From contig NZ_JAACJR010000003.1 of assembly GCF_009939225.1 (NCBI RefSeq), positions 248,001-312,000 on the forward strand: a stretch of DNA of 64,000 bases, in the 5' to 3' direction. This document shows, in pieces, positions 5,661 to 44,169 of the stretch. Origin of the DNA: Sediminibacterium soli. GTDB taxonomy: Bacteria; Bacteroidota; Bacteroidia; Chitinophagales; Chitinophagaceae. Both the position numbers and the translations under genes were made by a program. A model generated the notes under the pieces. It saw nothing but the letters and a program-made list of their open reading frames with translations, was not told the origin of the DNA and made no database searches. Numbering within the stretch: position 1 is the stretch's first letter; each line of letters begins with the position of its first letter.

Positions 5661-5834
5661 AGAAGGAACAAGGAACAGATGAACAAGGAACGGAGCGGCG
5701 GCTGAGCATGGGTCGGGCAGCGGTTTTCCCGATCATCCGTTCCCATCACGGGCCGAGATTTAAGCTTTATTTCACCTGTTGGTACATATGCATTTTTTTT
5801 CTCCTCCCGGGTTTTCTCTATTTTCGGGCCCGAA

Positions 5835-6218
5835 ATGAAGGCAACCGCATTCTTTGTATTCCTGATACTACTGCTCAGTGGTGGCAATTATGCTGCCGCA
5901 ATGCCGGTATTTTCGGGGAACGCGGTAACTGCCCTTCAGGCTCCCGCTGCACAGACGGCGGGCATAGCGCAGGACCAGACCCTGCTCAAATCCATCTATC
6001 TCGATACCAAGGCCGAATACCTGGTTGCCGACAACTTTGAAGACGAAGAAGACAATAATGATACCGTTGCACGCAAACTCAGGTCCCTGCTCAGGGCTTC
6101 GCTCACGTCATCGTACCTGTTTGCGCTAAGCCGTCTTTATAACTGCCGGGCATTTTATAAGCCTATGGGCGGTTTGTCATCCGACAAATACCTTGTTCAG
6201 CGGGTACTGCGCATCTGA
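5835..6218 (+). CDS. Small exported protein of unknown function
   Basis: A 127-residue protein with a clear signal peptide (about residues 1-22, ending YAAA). The mature part has an acidic stretch (NFEDEEDNNDTVARKLR) in the middle and a C-terminal segment rich in Leu, Tyr and Arg. I recognise no family. It lies 174 bp after the LLM gene and 99 bp before the RND efflux operon, on the same strand. A -7-like TATTTTCG occurs just before the start. The signal peptide, plausible codon use and position support a real gene; function is unknown. Confidence 0.55.
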   Translation: MKATAFFVFLILLLSGGNYAAAMPVFSGNAVTALQAPAAQTAGIAQDQTLLKSIYLDTKAEYLVADNFEDEEDNNDTVARKLRSLLRASLTSSYLFALSRLYNCRAFYKPMGGLSSDKYLVQRVLRI

Positions 6219-37417: not shown

Positions 37418-37433
37418 TTTTCAAAATAATACG

Positions 37434-40400
37434 ATGGAAAAAAAGCACTGGCAAAGTTTTGGAGAGCTGAATCAGTCTGATGCATATCAGAAAGATACCA
37501 GGGACGAATTCAGGGACGAGCTTCCTTTTGTGGGCGATGAGAGCAAAAGCTTCCTGGCCGCCAAAGCGCCGCGCAGGGATTTCCTGAAATACCTTGGCTT
37601 CAGCACTGCCGCTGCAGCCGTTGCCGCAAGCTGTGAGATGCCCGTAAAAAAGGCGATCCCCTTTGCCAACAAACCCGAAGACATCGTTCCCGGCGTTGCC
37701 AAGTATTACGCCACCACCTATGTGCAGGATGGCGATGTGCTGAGCATTCTTGCCAAAGTGCGCGATGGCCGCCCGATCAAAATAGAAGGTAATGAACTGG
37801 ATCCGTTCAACGGCGGTGGCACCTCCGCCCGTGTTCAGGCTTCCGTTCTTGACCTGTACGATACCGCCCGTCTCCGTTTTCCTACGATTGACGGCAAGGA
37901 AGTGACTTTTGAAGCGATCGACAAATCCATCGCCGGCGCTATGGCAGGTCCGGTGGTGATCCTCACAAGCTCTGTCACTTCTCCCACAACCAAAGCGATC
38001 ATTGCCGAATTCATTGCCAAATACCCCGGAAGCCGCCATGTAACTTACGATGCGGTTTCTTACAGCGGTATGCTGCTGGCCAATGAAGCCACCTACGGTA
38101 AAAAAGCCATTCCTTCCTATCATTTCGAAACTGCCAAAGCCATTGTGAGCATCGGCGCCGATTTTCTCGGTACCTGGCTCAGCCCGGTGGAGTTTGGCAA
38201 ACAATACGCCACCGGCAAGAAGCTGAACGAGAAAGCGCCCGAGATGAGCAGGCATATCCATTTCGAAGCAGTGGCCAGCCTCACCGGCGCCAATGCGGAT
38301 GAAAAATTCCTGCACCGTCCTTCCGAAACAGGCGCCATACTGACCGCGCTGTTATCGGCCGTGAACGGACAGGGCGTAACCGGCATCAGCGATGCCAAAC
38401 TGAAAGCGGGCATCGAAAAAGCCGCCAAAGCGCTTACCGAAAACAAAGGCGCCGCCCTTGTGGTTTGCGGAAGCAACGATGTGAATGCGCAGATCGTCAC
38501 CAATGCCATCAACGAAGCCGTTGACGCCAATGGTAAAACGATCGACTGGACCGCAACCGTGAATAGCCGCCAGGGTGTGGATGCTGATTTTGTGAAACTG
38601 GTGGAAGACATGAATGCCGGAACCGTGGGAACCATCCTTGTCCACGGCGCCAATCCTGCCTATACCTGGTACGATGCGGAGAAATTCAAAGCCGGACTGA
38701 AGAAAGTAAGAACAACGATTTCATTTGGTGCAAAAGCGGACGAGACAACAGAGCTCTGCCGTTATGTACTGCCCGATAGCCATTTCCTGGAGAGCTGGGG
38801 TGATGCCGAGCCAAAAGCCGGTCATTATTCCTTTATGCAGCCGACCATCTTCCCGCTGTTCAAAACACGCCAGTGGCAGGACAGCCTGCTGAAATGGTCA
38901 GGAAATACAAACGATTACCTCGCCTACCTCAAGAATTACTGGGGAACACAGGCTGGTGGTGAAGCAGGCTGGGATAAAGCATTGCGCGATGGCGTGATCA
39001 ATCCTGCCACACCGGTTGCCGTTTCGGCCGCTGCATTCAACGGCGCTTCGGTTGCCACTGCGCTGACGGCCCTGGCTTCGGGTAAGAAAGGCGGTAAGAC
39101 CGAACTGGTGATATACGAGAAAGTGGCCATCGGTGCCACCGGCGCTGCCAACCCATGGCTGCAGGAAATGCCCGATCCGGTTACCCGTGCCACATGGGAT
39201 AACTACGTGATCGTTTCTCCTGCGCTGGCCCGCACACTGCTCAGCATTGATCTGAACCATAACGGCCAGGCCGATGACTACGAGGTAAACCCTCCGAAAC
39301 CCGTTGTTAAAGTAACCGTAGGCGGCAAGACCATCGAACTGCCGGCACTGATCATACCAGGCACACATCCCGATACCATCGGTATTGCATTGGGATACGG
39401 CCGCAGCGAAAAAATGGGTAAATCAGTGGTTGGGTCAGGTAAGAGTGCCTTCCCGCTGCTGAGTTTTAACGGCACCACCGTGAGCAACACCAATGTGGAT
39501 GTTACCATCACGGCCACGGGCGAAAAATACCCGGTGGCCCTTGTTCAGACACATAACCGTTACGACACCACACAGGGTGAGCGTACCGAAGTGGTGAAAG
39601 AACTCACGCTGGCAGAATACAAAGAACATCCCACCGAAATACTCGAAGAACGTGAAGAAGAACTGAAACCATGGGGTGGTCTTGAAAAATTTGAAGGCAA
39701 AGGAACCTTATATCCTGTATACGACAGACCCGGTATCAAATGGGGTATGAGCATAGACCTCAACAGCTGTAACGGTTGCGGTGCCTGCGTGGTGGCCTGT
39801 AACGTGGAGAACAATATTGCTGTTGTGGGTAAACCCGAAGTGCTCCGCGGCCACGAAATGCACTGGCTCCGTATCGACCGCTACTACAGCGGTGATATGG
39901 ACAACCCGAACACCGTATTCCAGCCGATGCTTTGCCAGCACTGCGATAACGCTCCCTGTGAGAACGTTTGTCCGGTGGCGGCAACCAACCACAGCAGCGA
40001 AGGCCTGAACCAGATGGCCTATAACCGCTGTATCGGTACCCGTTACTGCTCAAACAACTGTCCGTTTAAAGTGCGCCGCTTCAACTGGGCCGATTATATG
40101 GGTGCCGACAGCTTCCCGCATAACCAGGATATACTGAGCGATGTGGTGCTGAACATGAACGACGATCTTACCCGTATGGTGCTGAACCCGGATGTAACCG
40201 TACGTTCACGTGGTGTGATCGAAAAATGTTCATTCTGTGTACAGCGTCTGCAGGAAGGTAAACTGGAAGCAAAACGGAACAGCCGTCCGCTCGAAGATAA
40301 AGATGTGAAGACAGCCTGTCAGCAGGCCTGCGCCAGCGGTTGTATCACTTTCGGTAACCTGAACAACCCCAACAGCGAGGTGTCCAAACTGAGAAAAGAC

Positions 40401-40529
40401 AACCCGAACCGTTCCTTCCATGTGCTGGAGCAGCTGCATGTACTGCCAAGTATTTCTTACCTGGCAAAAGTGAGGAACTCGGAAGAAGCGCATGGTAAAG
40501 CGGAAGAGAAGAAAGAAGCGCATTCATAG
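37434..40529 (+). CDS. actB: Alternative complex III subunit B, molybdopterin-like iron-sulfur protein
   Basis: A 1,031-residue protein from the ATG at 37434. A variant twin-arginine motif (APRRDFLKYLGFS) is followed by an Ala-rich stretch, marking export or membrane attachment of the folded protein. The first three quarters resemble molybdopterin oxidoreductases but in this complex hold no molybdenum. From about residue 770 a ferredoxin-like domain has the Cys clusters CNGCGACVVACN, CQHCDNAPCENVCP, CIGTRYCSNNCP and CSFCVQ...CQQACASGC, enough for four Fe-S clusters. It passes electrons from menaquinol to ActA. An inserted cassette separates it from actC, which is normally the next gene. Confidence 0.95.
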   Translation: MEKKHWQSFGELNQSDAYQKDTRDEFRDELPFVGDESKSFLAAKAPRRDFLKYLGFSTAAAAVAASCEMPVKKAIPFANKPEDIVPGVAKYYATTYVQDGDVLSILAKVRDGRPIKIEGNELDPFNGGGTSARVQASVLDLYDTARLRFPTIDGKEVTFEAIDKSIAGAMAGPVVILTSSVTSPTTKAIIAEFIAKYPGSRHVTYDAVSYSGMLLANEATYGKKAIPSYHFETAKAIVSIGADFLGTWLSPVEFGKQYATGKKLNEKAPEMSRHIHFEAVASLTGANADEKFLHRPSETGAILTALLSAVNGQGVTGISDAKLKAGIEKAAKALTENKGAALVVCGSNDVNAQIVTNAINEAVDANGKTIDWTATVNSRQGVDADFVKLVEDMNAGTVGTILVHGANPAYTWYDAEKFKAGLKKVRTTISFGAKADETTELCRYVLPDSHFLESWGDAEPKAGHYSFMQPTIFPLFKTRQWQDSLLKWSGNTNDYLAYLKNYWGTQAGGEAGWDKALRDGVINPATPVAVSAAAFNGASVATALTALASGKKGGKTELVIYEKVAIGATGAANPWLQEMPDPVTRATWDNYVIVSPALARTLLSIDLNHNGQADDYEVNPPKPVVKVTVGGKTIELPALIIPGTHPDTIGIALGYGRSEKMGKSVVGSGKSAFPLLSFNGTTVSNTNVDVTITATGEKYPVALVQTHNRYDTTQGERTEVVKELTLAEYKEHPTEILEEREEELKPWGGLEKFEGKGTLYPVYDRPGIKWGMSIDLNSCNGCGACVVACNVENNIAVVGKPEVLRGHEMHWLRIDRYYSGDMDNPNTVFQPMLCQHCDNAPCENVCPVAATNHSSEGLNQMAYNRCIGTRYCSNNCPFKVRRFNWADYMGADSFPHNQDILSDVVLNMNDDLTRMVLNPDVTVRSRGVIEKCSFCVQRLQEGKLEAKRNSRPLEDKDVKTACQQACASGCITFGNLNNPNSEVSKLRKDNPNRSFHVLEQLHVLPSISYLAKVRNSEEAHGKAEEKKEAHS

Positions 40530-40559
40530 TCAAACGTGAAAGACAAATCCCCTTTCACC

Positions 40560-40596
40560 TTTGACAAAAAGAAGTTGATTCAATAAAAATAGCTAT
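40560..40596 (+). repeat. Left direct repeat flanking the inserted cassette
   Basis: A 37-bp sequence (core GAAGTTGATTCAATAAAAAT) starting 31 bp after the actB stop. It recurs at 42652-42689 with one extra G and one G-to-A change. Both copies are in the same orientation on either side of the two-gene AT-rich cassette. Confidence 0.88.
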
Positions 40597-40631
40597 AGCC
40601 TATTAACTATGGCTTAAGTAAGTAAACAGTA

Positions 40632-42110
40632 ATGCTACACAAGTTGCATATGAACACAATAATCAAAGCGGTGAAAATGCTACTGGGTTTTTTAGTAGTG
40701 GCATGCTGCATGTTGTTCTCATGTAACAAAAGTGTTGTAGGGGTTTCTTCTATAGAAAAAACCGAGTTACAAACTTGGCTAAGAGAAAATGGGTTGAATT
40801 TTTCCTCAGGAACTCTTTATGTAAAAAACAATTCCGGTGGTCAGGACGAAAAAAAAATAGACTGGGATAGAATAAGCAGTTTCAAATCAGGAGCATTTCA
40901 CTTTTTTGATGTTCCATATAGCTCTTCCCAAGAAAGTAGCGCAGATTTTTTTTTAGTTTTTCAAAAAAATGAATATGGCCAAATTGAAGCACGAATAAAA
41001 ATTGTTTTTAAAAGAGATCCCTCAGTGCCGATTTCTAAGGGGGACACATATTATGCAGCTTCATTTTTTGATAGATTAGATGGCAGTCGGGAAGCGAATT
41101 TTATTTGGAAAGACGTTAGTGCTAAAATGCCAATTAGAGTTTATCGCAAGCCTCAGACCGCTTATTCCGTTCTTTCGCAAAATTCAAGAAAACAATTTTA
41201 TGTCCCCGACGATTGTGCCAGTTATTTGATTCCAAATCGAGAATATATTTGTCGATTTGTAGGCATTTCAGAATCGCAGTCTTATAATATGGAGTGCGGT
41301 TATGAAACCATCGGTTATACCACGTTTACAGTTTGTTTGCCACAATCAGGAGGAGGAGGAGGGGTTTCGTCGGAGACTTTTTATTATCCAGGGTATTATC
41401 ATTCAGGAACCAACGGACTGACAAATTTACCTAACAAAAGGATAATAGACTCCTTGGACGGATACCCCTGTGCCCAAAATGCGATGGCGAATTCTATTTT
41501 TAATTATAATGGAATTTGCGACGAAATATATTCGTTACTAATGGGAACCTTTAATGTATCGAGTTCAGTCGACCTCATTTACAAGGTGGACAATAGTTTA
41601 ACAATGAGCGACCTGCTGAACGGTTATGCAGACTCTATACATTTTCTTAACGATCCATTTACTTATAGCGAAAGAGTTTATTTGAATCCATGGGTGTTAA
41701 AGAATTCGAGTCAGGAATTTACGGTGTCTGTATTAATACACGAAGGGATGCACGCAGTTATTGATTATTGGCGAAAGCAACAAAGGTATGGATACATTGA
41801 TTCGGTTCAATTTAAAAATATGTTTCCTATTTTCTGGGACTATAACAGAGTAAGAACGGGCACAGAGTTGTCTCAGCATAGTCAAATGGCAGAAGGGTAT
41901 ATTGGCCAATTCAAGCATTTTTTGAGTGGGTTTAATAGTAACATTAGTGATAGCATGGCGACAGCTTTAGCTTGGATGGGATTACAAGAAACTACAGCGT
42001 GGAAAGCGAGATCGGATACTAATGAATTGAAAATATTACAGCATATAGCTCGAAGGGATAATAGCGATTCTACGAGATATTCAACTTATTTATTAAAGAA
42101 ATGCCCATAA
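40632..42110 (+). CDS. Secreted lipoprotein with HExxH zinc-protease motif
   Basis: A 492-residue protein (an ATG six codons later is an alternative start). A lipoprotein signal ends CCMLFSCNK, with Cys31 as lipidation site. The N-terminal 220 residues look beta-rich with no family I can name. A Gly run (about 239-243) links to a C-terminal domain with a conserved-looking DGYPCAQNAM segment and the metalloprotease motif LIHEGMHAVIDYW (His370, Glu371, His374). A Glu in HSQMAEGYIGQF about 45 residues later could be the third zinc ligand. It is clearly more AT-rich than the flanking act genes. It overlaps the next gene by 10 bp. A cell-envelope peptidase is plausible; the substrate is unknown. 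Confidence 0.7.
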   Translation: MLHKLHMNTIIKAVKMLLGFLVVACCMLFSCNKSVVGVSSIEKTELQTWLRENGLNFSSGTLYVKNNSGGQDEKKIDWDRISSFKSGAFHFFDVPYSSSQESSADFFLVFQKNEYGQIEARIKIVFKRDPSVPISKGDTYYAASFFDRLDGSREANFIWKDVSAKMPIRVYRKPQTAYSVLSQNSRKQFYVPDDCASYLIPNREYICRFVGISESQSYNMECGYETIGYTTFTVCLPQSGGGGGVSSETFYYPGYYHSGTNGLTNLPNKRIIDSLDGYPCAQNAMANSIFNYNGICDEIYSLLMGTFNVSSSVDLIYKVDNSLTMSDLLNGYADSIHFLNDPFTYSERVYLNPWVLKNSSQEFTVSVLIHEGMHAVIDYWRKQQRYGYIDSVQFKNMFPIFWDYNRVRTGTELSQHSQMAEGYIGQFKHFLSGFNSNISDSMATALAWMGLQETTAWKARSDTNELKILQHIARRDNSDSTRYSTYLLKKCP

Positions 42111-42601
42111 AAATTAAAACGATATTGTTTTTATGTAGCATTTTTGCTTTTCAATTTTCGAAAGCACAAAATTCTTTTGCAGAAAGTCTTCGCAGGCTAA
42201 TTGGCAGAAGCATGGTTGAAAAAAGGAATGTCTATAATGAGTTTAGCGAGATTGTTTTTATTGAGTATAAGCTGAAGGGCAGAAAAATTGAAGTTAGAAA
42301 GTCTGGAAATAGTATATATGTAAAAGCAATAGAAGAAATAATAAGCAACAAACGTATTTCGCAATTTATAAAAGATTCGGCCAAAGTGAATTTCTTGTTG
42401 CCAGTTTATTTTTCGGTTGACCATGATGAGAAAGATTGGAAGTGGGGAGATGATGCTTTGTTATTTTCGCGGAGTGGGGTAAAAGGGATATTTGCTCTGT
42501 TATCGGAAGCAAATAAGGGGATTAAAGAGATTTTTGAGCCGCTTATCGTAGCACCTACTTTCAATGGAAGAAAGACGCAGATCGAAGCGGACAATGAATG
42601 A
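42101..42601 (+). CDS. Small exported partner of the HExxH lipoprotein
   Basis: A 166-residue protein with a signal peptide (IKTILFLCSIFAFQFSKAQ). The mature part is mixed alpha/beta with a basic N-terminal half and a central DHDEKDWKWGDD acidic patch; there are no Cys residues. I recognise no family. Its start overlaps the HExxH gene by 10 bp, so the two are translated together, and both are AT-rich and enclosed by direct repeats. A role as inhibitor, chaperone or immunity protein for the putative peptidase is a reasonable guess from the pairing, but nothing in the sequence proves it. Confidence 0.6.
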   Translation: MPIKIKTILFLCSIFAFQFSKAQNSFAESLRRLIGRSMVEKRNVYNEFSEIVFIEYKLKGRKIEVRKSGNSIYVKAIEEIISNKRISQFIKDSAKVNFLLPVYFSVDHDEKDWKWGDDALLFSRSGVKGIFALLSEANKGIKEIFEPLIVAPTFNGRKTQIEADNE

Positions 42602-42651
42602 GAGTAGAAGGACAAGGAAAAGTGAAGGGGCATTTTCTTTAATATCTAACT

Positions 42652-42689
42652 TTTGACAAAAAGGAAGTTGATTCAATAAAAATAACTAT
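42652..42689 (+). repeat. Right direct repeat flanking the inserted cassette
   Basis: A 38-bp near-copy of 40560-40596. It ends 37 bp before actC and is followed directly by TCCACAGCACTGCGGGGA (42691-42708), a relative of the 20-bp palindrome in the tRNA remnant at 23278. Confidence 0.88.
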
Positions 42690-42726
42690 CTCCACAGCAC
42701 TGCGGGGATGAACTAAACAAGACCAG

Positions 42727-44169
42727 ATGCATTTAAAGTACGAATCACAGCTGAGGGAACCGCTGGTGTATGGCGACAAAACCTATCACCAGGTAACGGA
42801 AGATATCGTTAGACCCATTGAGGCGAAACCATCCAGGCTTTGGTATATCGGTTTCTTTACGGCCGTTGCCCTGCTGATGTTTGGTGTGTACAGTGTGTAC
42901 AGGGAGGTTACCTACGGTATCGGTCAGTGGAACCTGAACAAGACCGTAGGATGGGGTTGGGATATCACCAACTTCGTATGGTGGGTGGGTATCGGTCACG
43001 CGGGTACGCTGATCTCTGCGATCCTGCTGCTGTTCCGCCAGGGATGGAGAACCGGTGTGAACCGTGCGGCGGAAGCCATGACCATCTTTGCGGTAATGTG
43101 CGCCGGTCAGTTCCCTATCTTCCACATGGGTCGTGTTTGGATGGCCTTCTTCGTACTGCCTTATCCCAACACACGCGGTCCGCTCTGGGTGAACTTTAAC
43201 TCACCGCTGTTATGGGATGTGTTCGCGATCTCCACCTATTTTACCGTATCACTTTTATTCTGGTATTCAGGTCTGATCCCCGATTTTGCCACCGTACGCG
43301 ACCGCGCTTTCACCAAACTGCGTAAGCGTTTGTATGGTATTGCATCATTCGGCTGGACAGGCTCCACCAAACACTGGCAGCGTCATGAAAGTCTTTCGCT
43401 GGTACTCGCCGGTCTGAGTACGCCGCTGGTACTGTCGGTACACACAATCGTATCCTTTGACTTCGCCACTTCGGTGATTCCCGGATGGCATACCACCATC
43501 TTTCCACCGTACTTCGTTGCCGGTGCCATCTTCTCGGGGTTTGCGATGACGCAGACACTGCTGCTGGTGGTACGTAAGGTATTCGGTCTGCAGGATTACA
43601 TCACCATGGGTCACGTGGAAGCGATGAACAAGGTGATCGTACTTACAGGTTCCATCGTAGGTATTGCCTATCTGACCGAACTGTTCATGGGCTGGTACAG
43701 CCAGAACAAATACGAAGGATACACTTTCTGGTACAGCCGTGCCTACCTGTTCAGTCCCTATGGCTGGAGCTACTGGGGCATGATGGCATGTAACGTGCTG
43801 AGCCCGCAGATATTCTGGTTCCGGAAAATGAGAAGGAACCTGTTCGTAACCTTCTTTATGAGCATCATCGTGAACACGGGTATGTGGTTCGAGCGTTTTG
43901 TGATCATCGTTACCTCGCTGTACCGCGATTATCTTCCGTCAAGCTGGTCTGTGTACTATCATCCGACCATCTGGGAGATCGGTTTTTACATGGGAACATT
44001 CGGCCTGTTCTTTACCTGCTTCTTCCTGTTCGCGAAGTATTTCCCGACGATCGCGATCGCAGAGATCAAGTATGTACTGAAAACAACAGGTGAATCCTAT
44101 AAAGACAAAATGGGCGTTTACGAAGCACAGCCGCTTGAGCAGTTTGCGCATGACCAGACGCACCATTGA
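42727..44169 (+). CDS. actC: Alternative complex III subunit C, NrfD-like membrane protein
   Basis: A 480-residue protein with about ten membrane helices of the NrfD/PsrC type (for example LWYIGFFTAVALLMFGVYSVY, WWVGIGHAGTLISAILLLF, FPIFHMGRVWMAFFVLPYP). In alternative complex III it forms, with ActB, the menaquinol oxidation site. Length and motifs are normal for the family. It would normally follow actB by a short gap; here the inserted cassette and repeat lie between. It is followed after 147 bp by actD. Confidence 0.95.
   Translation: MHLKYESQLREPLVYGDKTYHQVTEDIVRPIEAKPSRLWYIGFFTAVALLMFGVYSVYREVTYGIGQWNLNKTVGWGWDITNFVWWVGIGHAGTLISAILLLFRQGWRTGVNRAAEAMTIFAVMCAGQFPIFHMGRVWMAFFVLPYPNTRGPLWVNFNSPLLWDVFAISTYFTVSLLFWYSGLIPDFATVRDRAFTKLRKRLYGIASFGWTGSTKHWQRHESLSLVLAGLSTPLVLSVHTIVSFDFATSVIPGWHTTIFPPYFVAGAIFSGFAMTQTLLLVVRKVFGLQDYITMGHVEAMNKVIVLTGSIVGIAYLTELFMGWYSQNKYEGYTFWYSRAYLFSPYGWSYWGMMACNVLSPQIFWFRKMRRNLFVTFFMSIIVNTGMWFERFVIIVTSLYRDYLPSSWSVYYHPTIWEIGFYMGTFGLFFTCFFLFAKYFPTIAIAEIKYVLKTTGESYKDKMGVYEAQPLEQFAHDQTHH

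What the first reader, a model, noticed from the sequence alone, without database searches (positions are those of the whole stretch)
40560..42689. Direct-repeat-flanked secreted HExxH cassette inserted inside the alternative complex III operon
Seen: actB and actC, normally adjacent, are split by two AT-rich genes overlapping by 10 bp. A 37-bp sequence just after actB recurs as 38 bp just before actC (one indel, one substitution), same orientation. The first protein is a lipoprotein with LIHEGMHAVIDYW; the second is a 166-residue exported protein. Inference: a mobile two-gene module, perhaps peptidase plus inhibitor or immunity partner, that entered a core respiratory operon without breaking the flanking genes.
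Basis: partly seen in the sequence, partly recalled or inferred. Interest (0 to 1): 0.75.

Follow-up and report, generated by a model that had tools for sequence, protein, structure and literature searches.

The report
Polymorphic toxin-immunity pair inside respiratory operon
Between two genes of a core respiratory complex, this freshwater bacterium carries what looks like a membrane-anchored protease toxin plus its antidote, assembled from parts found elsewhere in its relatives, and unrelated versions of the same kind of gene pair have landed in that very gap at least three separate times.

Summary
Two AT-rich genes (492 and 166 aa, 10-bp overlap) separate actB from actC, flanked by a near-identical direct repeat (40/41 bp at full length) found twice in the genome. 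The gap is empty in nearly all relatives: 143 of 147 surveyed Chitinophagaceae genomes have no insert over 1 kb.

The repeats are not mobile-element ends. Copy 2 is the native actC leader (conserved motif plus hairpin) seen in empty gaps of relatives. Copy 1 is a duplicate of it. Five other inserts at this site lack repeats.

The genes are best read as a polymorphic toxin-immunity pair. The lipoprotein's C-terminal SprT-like metallopeptidase tip is 63% identical to one in another Sediminibacterium at a different locus, on an unrelated N-terminus; the partners there are 45% identical. The window's N-terminal half instead matches a third genome. A related N-terminal class also carries other tips, including Pfam's Tox-MPTase3. 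All 45 intact relatives with readable downstream sequence are followed by a small exported protein, against 18/75 control genes.

Four highly divergent pairs of this kind occupy actB-actC, needing at least three independent arrivals. No other act/cox junction held an insert. Toxicity, immunity, delivery and read-through are inferred, not shown.

The parts
37431..40529 (+). actB (ACIII Fe-S/molybdopterin-like subunit), upstream flank, intact
   Evidence: ORF and tblastn to relatives
40557..40596 (+). Direct repeat copy 1 (40 bp): duplicated actB-actC intergenic leader motif
   Evidence: alignment; two copies only in the genome
40591..40614 (+). Hairpin after repeat copy 1, corresponding to the hairpin of native actC leaders
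40632..42110 (+). Lipoprotein, 492 aa: lipobox Cys31, N-terminal half, Gly linker, C-terminal SprT-like metallopeptidase tip (predicted toxin)
41349..41363 (+). Gly5 linker (residues 240-244) between N-terminal module and tip
41421..42107 (+). Exchangeable C-terminal tip (residues 264-492)
   Evidence: 63% identity to L151 tip, no N-terminal similarity
41739..41753 (+). HEGMH zinc-binding motif (residues 370-374)
   Evidence: invariant H370, E371, H374 in 13 members
41877..41879 (+). His416, invariant third candidate zinc ligand
42101..42601 (+). Exported partner, 166 aa, signal peptide (predicted immunity or inhibitor protein)
42649..42689 (+). Direct repeat copy 2 (41 bp): native actC leader motif
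   Evidence: aligned with empty gaps of relatives
42687..42710 (+). Hairpin of the native actC leader
42727..44169 (+). actC (NrfD-like membrane subunit), downstream flank, intact
   Evidence: 90-96% identical to relatives

Best explanation
This is a lipoprotein-type polymorphic toxin-immunity pair that was inserted between actB and actC and rides on the alternative complex III operon. Shown by sequence: gene 1 is a lipoprotein built of an N-terminal module, a Gly linker and an exchangeable C-terminal SprT-like zinc-peptidase tip with HExxH and a third invariant His; gene 2 encodes a small exported partner that follows the tip class in the best-resolved comparisons; the pair sits in a junction that is empty in relatives, with a duplicated actC leader in front of gene 1. 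Inferred: the tip cleaves an envelope or periplasmic target in competing cells, the exported partner neutralises it in the producer's own periplasm, and both genes are transcribed with actB-actC because no terminator-like site intervenes. The leader probably duplicated during the insertion event (recombination), rather than as the target site of a transposon. How the toxin reaches a target cell is unknown.
For: Tip swapping: the window tip is 63% identical over 230 aa to the tip of L151 (another Sediminibacterium, another locus), while the N-termini show only noise (16 bits) and the partners are 45% identical, E 4e-41. The window protein matches L184 (same genus, third locus) at 33% over its full length, including the N-terminus, but the partner there is only 19% identical, E 0.005. 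So the partner goes with the tip. Reverse swap: the N-terminal class shared by L025, L151 and L153 carries divergent tips and, in six more Sediminibacterium proteins, tips that the SprT-tip profile does not detect. One of these is Tox-MPTase3, 44.1 bits against a cut-off of 25. Pairing: all 45 intact relatives with readable downstream sequence have an exported ORF next, against 18/75 control genes, Fisher P about 1e-18. Partner arrays, orphan tips and broken tips occur in relatives. Fold: SprT-like Pfam hits in 7 of 8 members, best 3e-7; the model's nearest solved folds are Spartan, Z 7.1, and selecase, Z 6.8, followed by other zinc peptidases. Insertion: empty site in relatives. Recurrence: four such pairs in this gap (window, L025, G193, G448), at least three independent arrivals on the tip tree; no inserts over 400 bp in six other act/cox junctions, 437 observations.
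Against: No toxicity, protease activity or immunity has been tested. The window tip is below Pfam's SprT-like cut-off (17.9 against 25.6 bits), and Z 7.1 is within the range the tool warns about. Across all 29 pairs, tip and partner similarity do not correlate significantly (Mantel r 0.03); partners are mostly too divergent to compare, so 'partner follows tip' rests on the close pairs. One close tip pair (L025-L101) has unrelated partners. The Tox-MPTase3 carrier belongs to the N-terminal class of L151, not to the window's own N-terminal class. Partner-gene duplication and orphan tips are seen only in relatives, not in the window. No delivery system is identified; TssC (T6SS) was not found in the genome.
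Confidence: 0.74

Rival explanations
1. A secreted metallopeptidase with its own inhibitor or chaperone, used for nutrition or envelope maintenance rather than antagonism; the partner keeps the enzyme inactive until it reaches the cell surface.
For: Peptidase fold and exported partner fit any protease-inhibitor pair.
Against: N-terminal modules of the family are shared with proteins carrying other tips, including a curated toxin domain. Sporadic distribution (43 of 396 genomes), extreme divergence, duplicated partners and broken tips are typical of conflict systems.
Confidence: 0.15
2. A transposon-like mobile element whose ends are the 40/41-bp direct repeats (target-site duplication or attachment sites).
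For: Repeats lie just outside the two genes, same orientation, about 93% identical; the site is empty in relatives.
Against: The repeat is the native actC leader of the family. Five other inserts in the gap have none. There is no recombinase gene, no further copy in the genome, and the related pairs at other loci (L151, L206) show no such repeat.
Confidence: 0.06
3. The actB-actC toxin locus is ancestral to Chitinophagaceae and was lost in most lineages, with tips exchanged in place.
For: The same gap holds pairs in Sediminibacterium (twice) and two other genera.
Against: Only 3 of 147 surveyed genomes have a pair there (4 have any insert over 1 kb). act-located tips do not group: 4 changes, at least 3 forced by starred branches. 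The nearest relatives of the window tip, of its N-terminus and of the L025 tip lie at other loci.
Confidence: 0.12

Closest known systems
SitA/SitI lipoprotein toxins of Myxococcus (PMC5562445, PMC8546572)
   Same: Toxin is itself a lipoprotein with exchangeable C-terminal domain and an adjacent cognate immunity gene.
   Different: Different phylum. Whether the N-terminus is related to SitA, and whether TraA/B exchange machinery exists here, was not tested. The SitA1-3 tips are nucleases toxic in the cytoplasm; here the tip is a predicted zinc peptidase and the partner is exported, implying a periplasmic or surface target.
Tox-MPTase1-5 polymorphic metallopeptidase toxins (PMC3482391)
   Same: HExxH zincin domain as the C-terminal tip of a polymorphic secreted protein. 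Tox-MPTase3 occurs on one N-terminal class of this family.
   Different: The window tip does not match any Tox-MPTase model; its only profile match is SprT-like, below cut-off. The paper describes the Tox-MPTases as typically associated with RHS repeats, not with short lipoproteins.
TANFOR/BaCT polymorphic toxins of Bacteroidetes (PMC7073777)
   Same: Bacteroidota carrier with variable tips and downstream immunity genes.
   Different: No TANFOR or other NCBIfam hit; carriers there are large proteins proposed to use T9SS, and the tip characterised there (BaCT) is a DNase.
SprT-like/Spartan and minigluzincin (selecase) peptidases
   Same: Predicted fold of the tip, HExxH helix, distal third His.
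   Different: Spartan is an intracellular DNA-repair protease and selecase an archaeal enzyme; this one is a domain of a secreted lipoprotein with a partner gene, and the window protein is below the Pfam cut-off.

Membership tests
Polymorphic toxin-immunity systems | N-terminal export signal on the toxin | tested here: met
   Lipoprotein signal with Cys31, Cys nearly invariant in 13 members
Polymorphic toxin-immunity systems | Same N-terminal carrier with different C-terminal domains, and same tip on different carriers | tested here: met
Polymorphic toxin-immunity systems | Cognate small gene directly downstream | tested here: met
   45/45 against 18/75 controls; partner follows tip in close pairs
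Polymorphic toxin-immunity systems | Orphan tips and immunity-gene arrays | tested here: met
   Met in relatives, e.g. L117, L138, L152, L159; not in the window itself
Polymorphic toxin-immunity systems | Tip is toxic and partner neutralises it | not testable with these tools
   Needs expression experiments
SprT-like peptidase family (PF10263) | Score above Pfam gathering cut-off | tested here: not met
   Window protein 17.9 bits against 25.6; relatives match down to E 3.3e-7
SprT-like peptidase family (PF10263) | HExxH plus distal His and SprT/minigluzincin fold | tested here: inconclusive
   Motif residues invariant; model nearest Spartan, Z 7.1, within the range the tool warns about
Tox-MPTase1-5 | Match to the Tox-MPTase profiles | tested here: not met
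   No hit for the window protein; Tox-MPTase3 hit on a related carrier only
TANFOR polymorphic toxins | N-terminal TANFOR domain (TIGR02542) | tested here: not met
   No NCBIfam hit up to E 10
SitA lipoprotein toxins | Homologous N-terminus and TraA-dependent outer-membrane exchange | not tested
   TraA/B and SitA were not searched for
Transposon or integrative element | Recombinase gene or paired ends shared by copies at other sites | tested here: not met
   No such gene among the insert's ORFs; repeat unique to this gap in the genome and absent beside related pairs

The most novel reading that the evidence does not exclude
Bacteroidota possess a widespread class of lipoprotein polymorphic toxins with exported immunity proteins, including SprT-like peptidase tips, and the actB-actC junction of the respiratory alternative complex III operon is a preferred landing site where such pairs and other surface lipoproteins are repeatedly captured to be co-expressed with aerobic respiration.
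Probability: 0.4. Interest if true: 0.75.

Novelty: new variant of a known kind. Interest (0 to 1): 0.6.

Why it matters
[quoted passage not shown] A lipoprotein carrier class with exchangeable tips and exported partners in Bacteroidota would extend that principle to another phylum and raises the question of how such toxins cross between cells. The recurrent, independent capture of unrelated pairs in one gap of a core respiratory operon suggests that being wired into that operon is useful (for example steady expression, or a hard-to-lose location), which can be tested directly by RNA-seq and by deletion in cultured species.

Tried and rejected
The repeats as a transposon signature: tested by genome-wide search and by comparing other inserts; rejected. 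Single-sequence searches with the window lipoprotein found nothing in 60 relatives, plasmids or viral contigs; homologs appeared only after profiles were built from L025 and later members. PADLOC gave no hits. A global Mantel test of tip against partner similarity was not significant, so only the close pairs are used. Foldseek gave no significant PDB match for the whole model, probably because the N-terminal half is modelled at low confidence; VIA-align on the confident tip was informative. The partner model is poor (mean pLDDT 55.8); a faint TonB C-terminal-domain match (Z 2.6) is not used. A REP-like motif (CAAGTGWGYGACRCAACG) seen in many relatives' gaps was considered as the recombination site; it is absent from the window.

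Full report
OBSERVATION. actB (to 40529) and actC (from 42727) are split by ORFs 40632-42110 (492 aa) and 42101-42601 (166 aa), overlapping by 10 bp. The insert has 33-40% GC against 50-55% in the flanking genes. The direct repeat is real, 40 bp against 41 bp with one indel and two substitutions; its score of 65 compares with a maximum of 35 in shuffles. It occurs twice in the genome. The closest named relatives are Sediminibacterium species.

EMPTY SITE. In the 80 nearest loci the actB-actC gap has a median of 74 bp. In two further sets of Chitinophagaceae (80 and 67 genomes) the match-to-match distance has medians of 138 and 170 bp, and only four genomes exceed 1 kb: this one, G193, G200 and G448. 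Among the 80 loci, L025 (1911 bp) and L057 (863 bp) also carry genes in the gap. Across six other junctions of the act/cox operon in the same loci (437 observations) no gap exceeded 400 bp.

THE REPEAT IS A DUPLICATED LEADER. Aligned with empty gaps, copy 2 plus the following hairpin and AAACAAGACCAG is the ordinary actC leader of many relatives (consensus AAAAGTTGATTCAATAAAAA-AACTAT, then hairpin, then AAACAAGACCAG and ATG). Copy 1 also carries a hairpin and AAACA before the first inserted gene. Each copy thus looks like a leader in front of a gene. The five other inserts show no repeat above chance. The repeats therefore record how this one insertion happened, probably by recombination that duplicated the leader (inference); they are not the ends of an element.

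WHAT GENE 1 IS. Its C-terminal half matches SprT-like peptidases weakly (17.9 bits, below cut-off), but seven of eight family members match, best 3.3e-7. H370, E371, H374 and H416 are invariant in 13 members. The tip is modelled at moderate to high confidence, mostly pLDDT 62-94 over residues 271-492, while most of the N-terminal half is poor. The nearest solved folds are Spartan (Z 7.1, 3.3 A over 110 residues) and selecase (Z 6.8), and the rows that follow in the top twenty are, by their titles, also zinc metallopeptidases; Z below 8 calls for caution. The family is found in 43 of 396 Chitinophagaceae genomes, in 13 of 121 genomes of the genus at a looser cut-off and in 28 of 345 Bacteroidota genomes.

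WHY A POLYMORPHIC TOXIN. (a) Same tip, different carrier: window residues 264-492 are 63% identical to the tip of L151 in another Sediminibacterium at an unrelated locus, with no N-terminal similarity, and the partners are 45% identical. (c) The N-terminal class of L025, L151 and L153 is also found on six proteins whose tips the SprT-tip profile misses; one is Tox-MPTase3 above the curated cut-off, and two others show HNHP or HTH motifs reminiscent of JAB peptidases (from sequence only, no Pfam hit). (d) All 45 intact relatives with readable downstream sequence have a small exported protein next, against 18 of 75 control genes. (e) Relatives show duplicated partners (L117, L152, L159, L160), orphan tips (L138, L128) and broken tips (L125, L137). 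A global Mantel test of tip against partner was not significant: most partners are too divergent to compare, and the link rests on the close pairs (five partner pairs of 84 bits or more, all with tips of 166 bits or more).

RECURRENT CAPTURE. Four lipoprotein-peptidase plus exported-partner pairs lie in actB-actC, always in operon orientation: the window, L025 (same locus as G814), G193 (with two partners) and G448. On the tip tree they need four changes, at least three forced by starred branches; the nearest tips of the window and of L025 lie at other loci. Two further inserts are a TIG/NHL lipoprotein (G200) and a 237-aa lipoprotein (L057). Three of the roughly 45 tip loci in 396 genomes were found in this one gap; with some 3000 intergenic gaps per genome (assumed) about 0.015 would be expected.

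MECHANISM. Shown: lipoprotein architecture, metallopeptidase motif, modular swapping, partner linkage in close pairs, insertion with leader duplication, recurrence. Inferred: the tip is a protease toxin acting in the envelope of other cells; the exported partner is the immunity protein; the pair is co-transcribed with the act operon (no terminator-like site between actB and actC). Delivery is unknown; TssC was not detected in the genome.

KNOWN KIN. SitA/SitI lipoprotein toxins of Myxococcus (PMC5562445) work most similarly but were reported from another phylum; homology was not tested. Tox-MPTases (PMC3482391) and TANFOR toxins (PMC7073777) share the general scheme. Searches of the held library found no description of SprT-like lipoprotein toxins or of act-operon insertions; most subscription journals are not in it.

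Noticed in passing
L020, actB-actC gap (5829-6000): Public scaffold NZ_KI866530.1 (S. salmoneum) has a loxP-like 34-mer, an N run and a duplicated gap end there: probably a mate-pair library linker left in the assembly.
   Followed up: no
L041:5904, L048:5889, L053:4283, L079:5065 and variants in other gaps: A REP-like motif (CAAGTGWGYGACRCAAC) recurs in actB-actC gaps of many Chitinophagaceae but is absent from the window; RAYT-like transposase ORFs lie near the toxin loci L127 and L155.
   Followed up: partly
L107:5794-6717: A SprT-like tip fused to a 4Fe-4S ferredoxin-like N-terminus instead of the usual lipoprotein carrier, still followed by an exported partner.
   Followed up: no
L169 and L172: Carriers of the L025/L151 N-terminal class with HNHP or HTH motifs in the tip, reminiscent of JAB-type peptidases; no Pfam match.
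   Followed up: no
L099:1264-2397: A 377-aa lipoprotein with TIG and NHL repeats occupies the same actB-actC gap in G200.
   Followed up: partly
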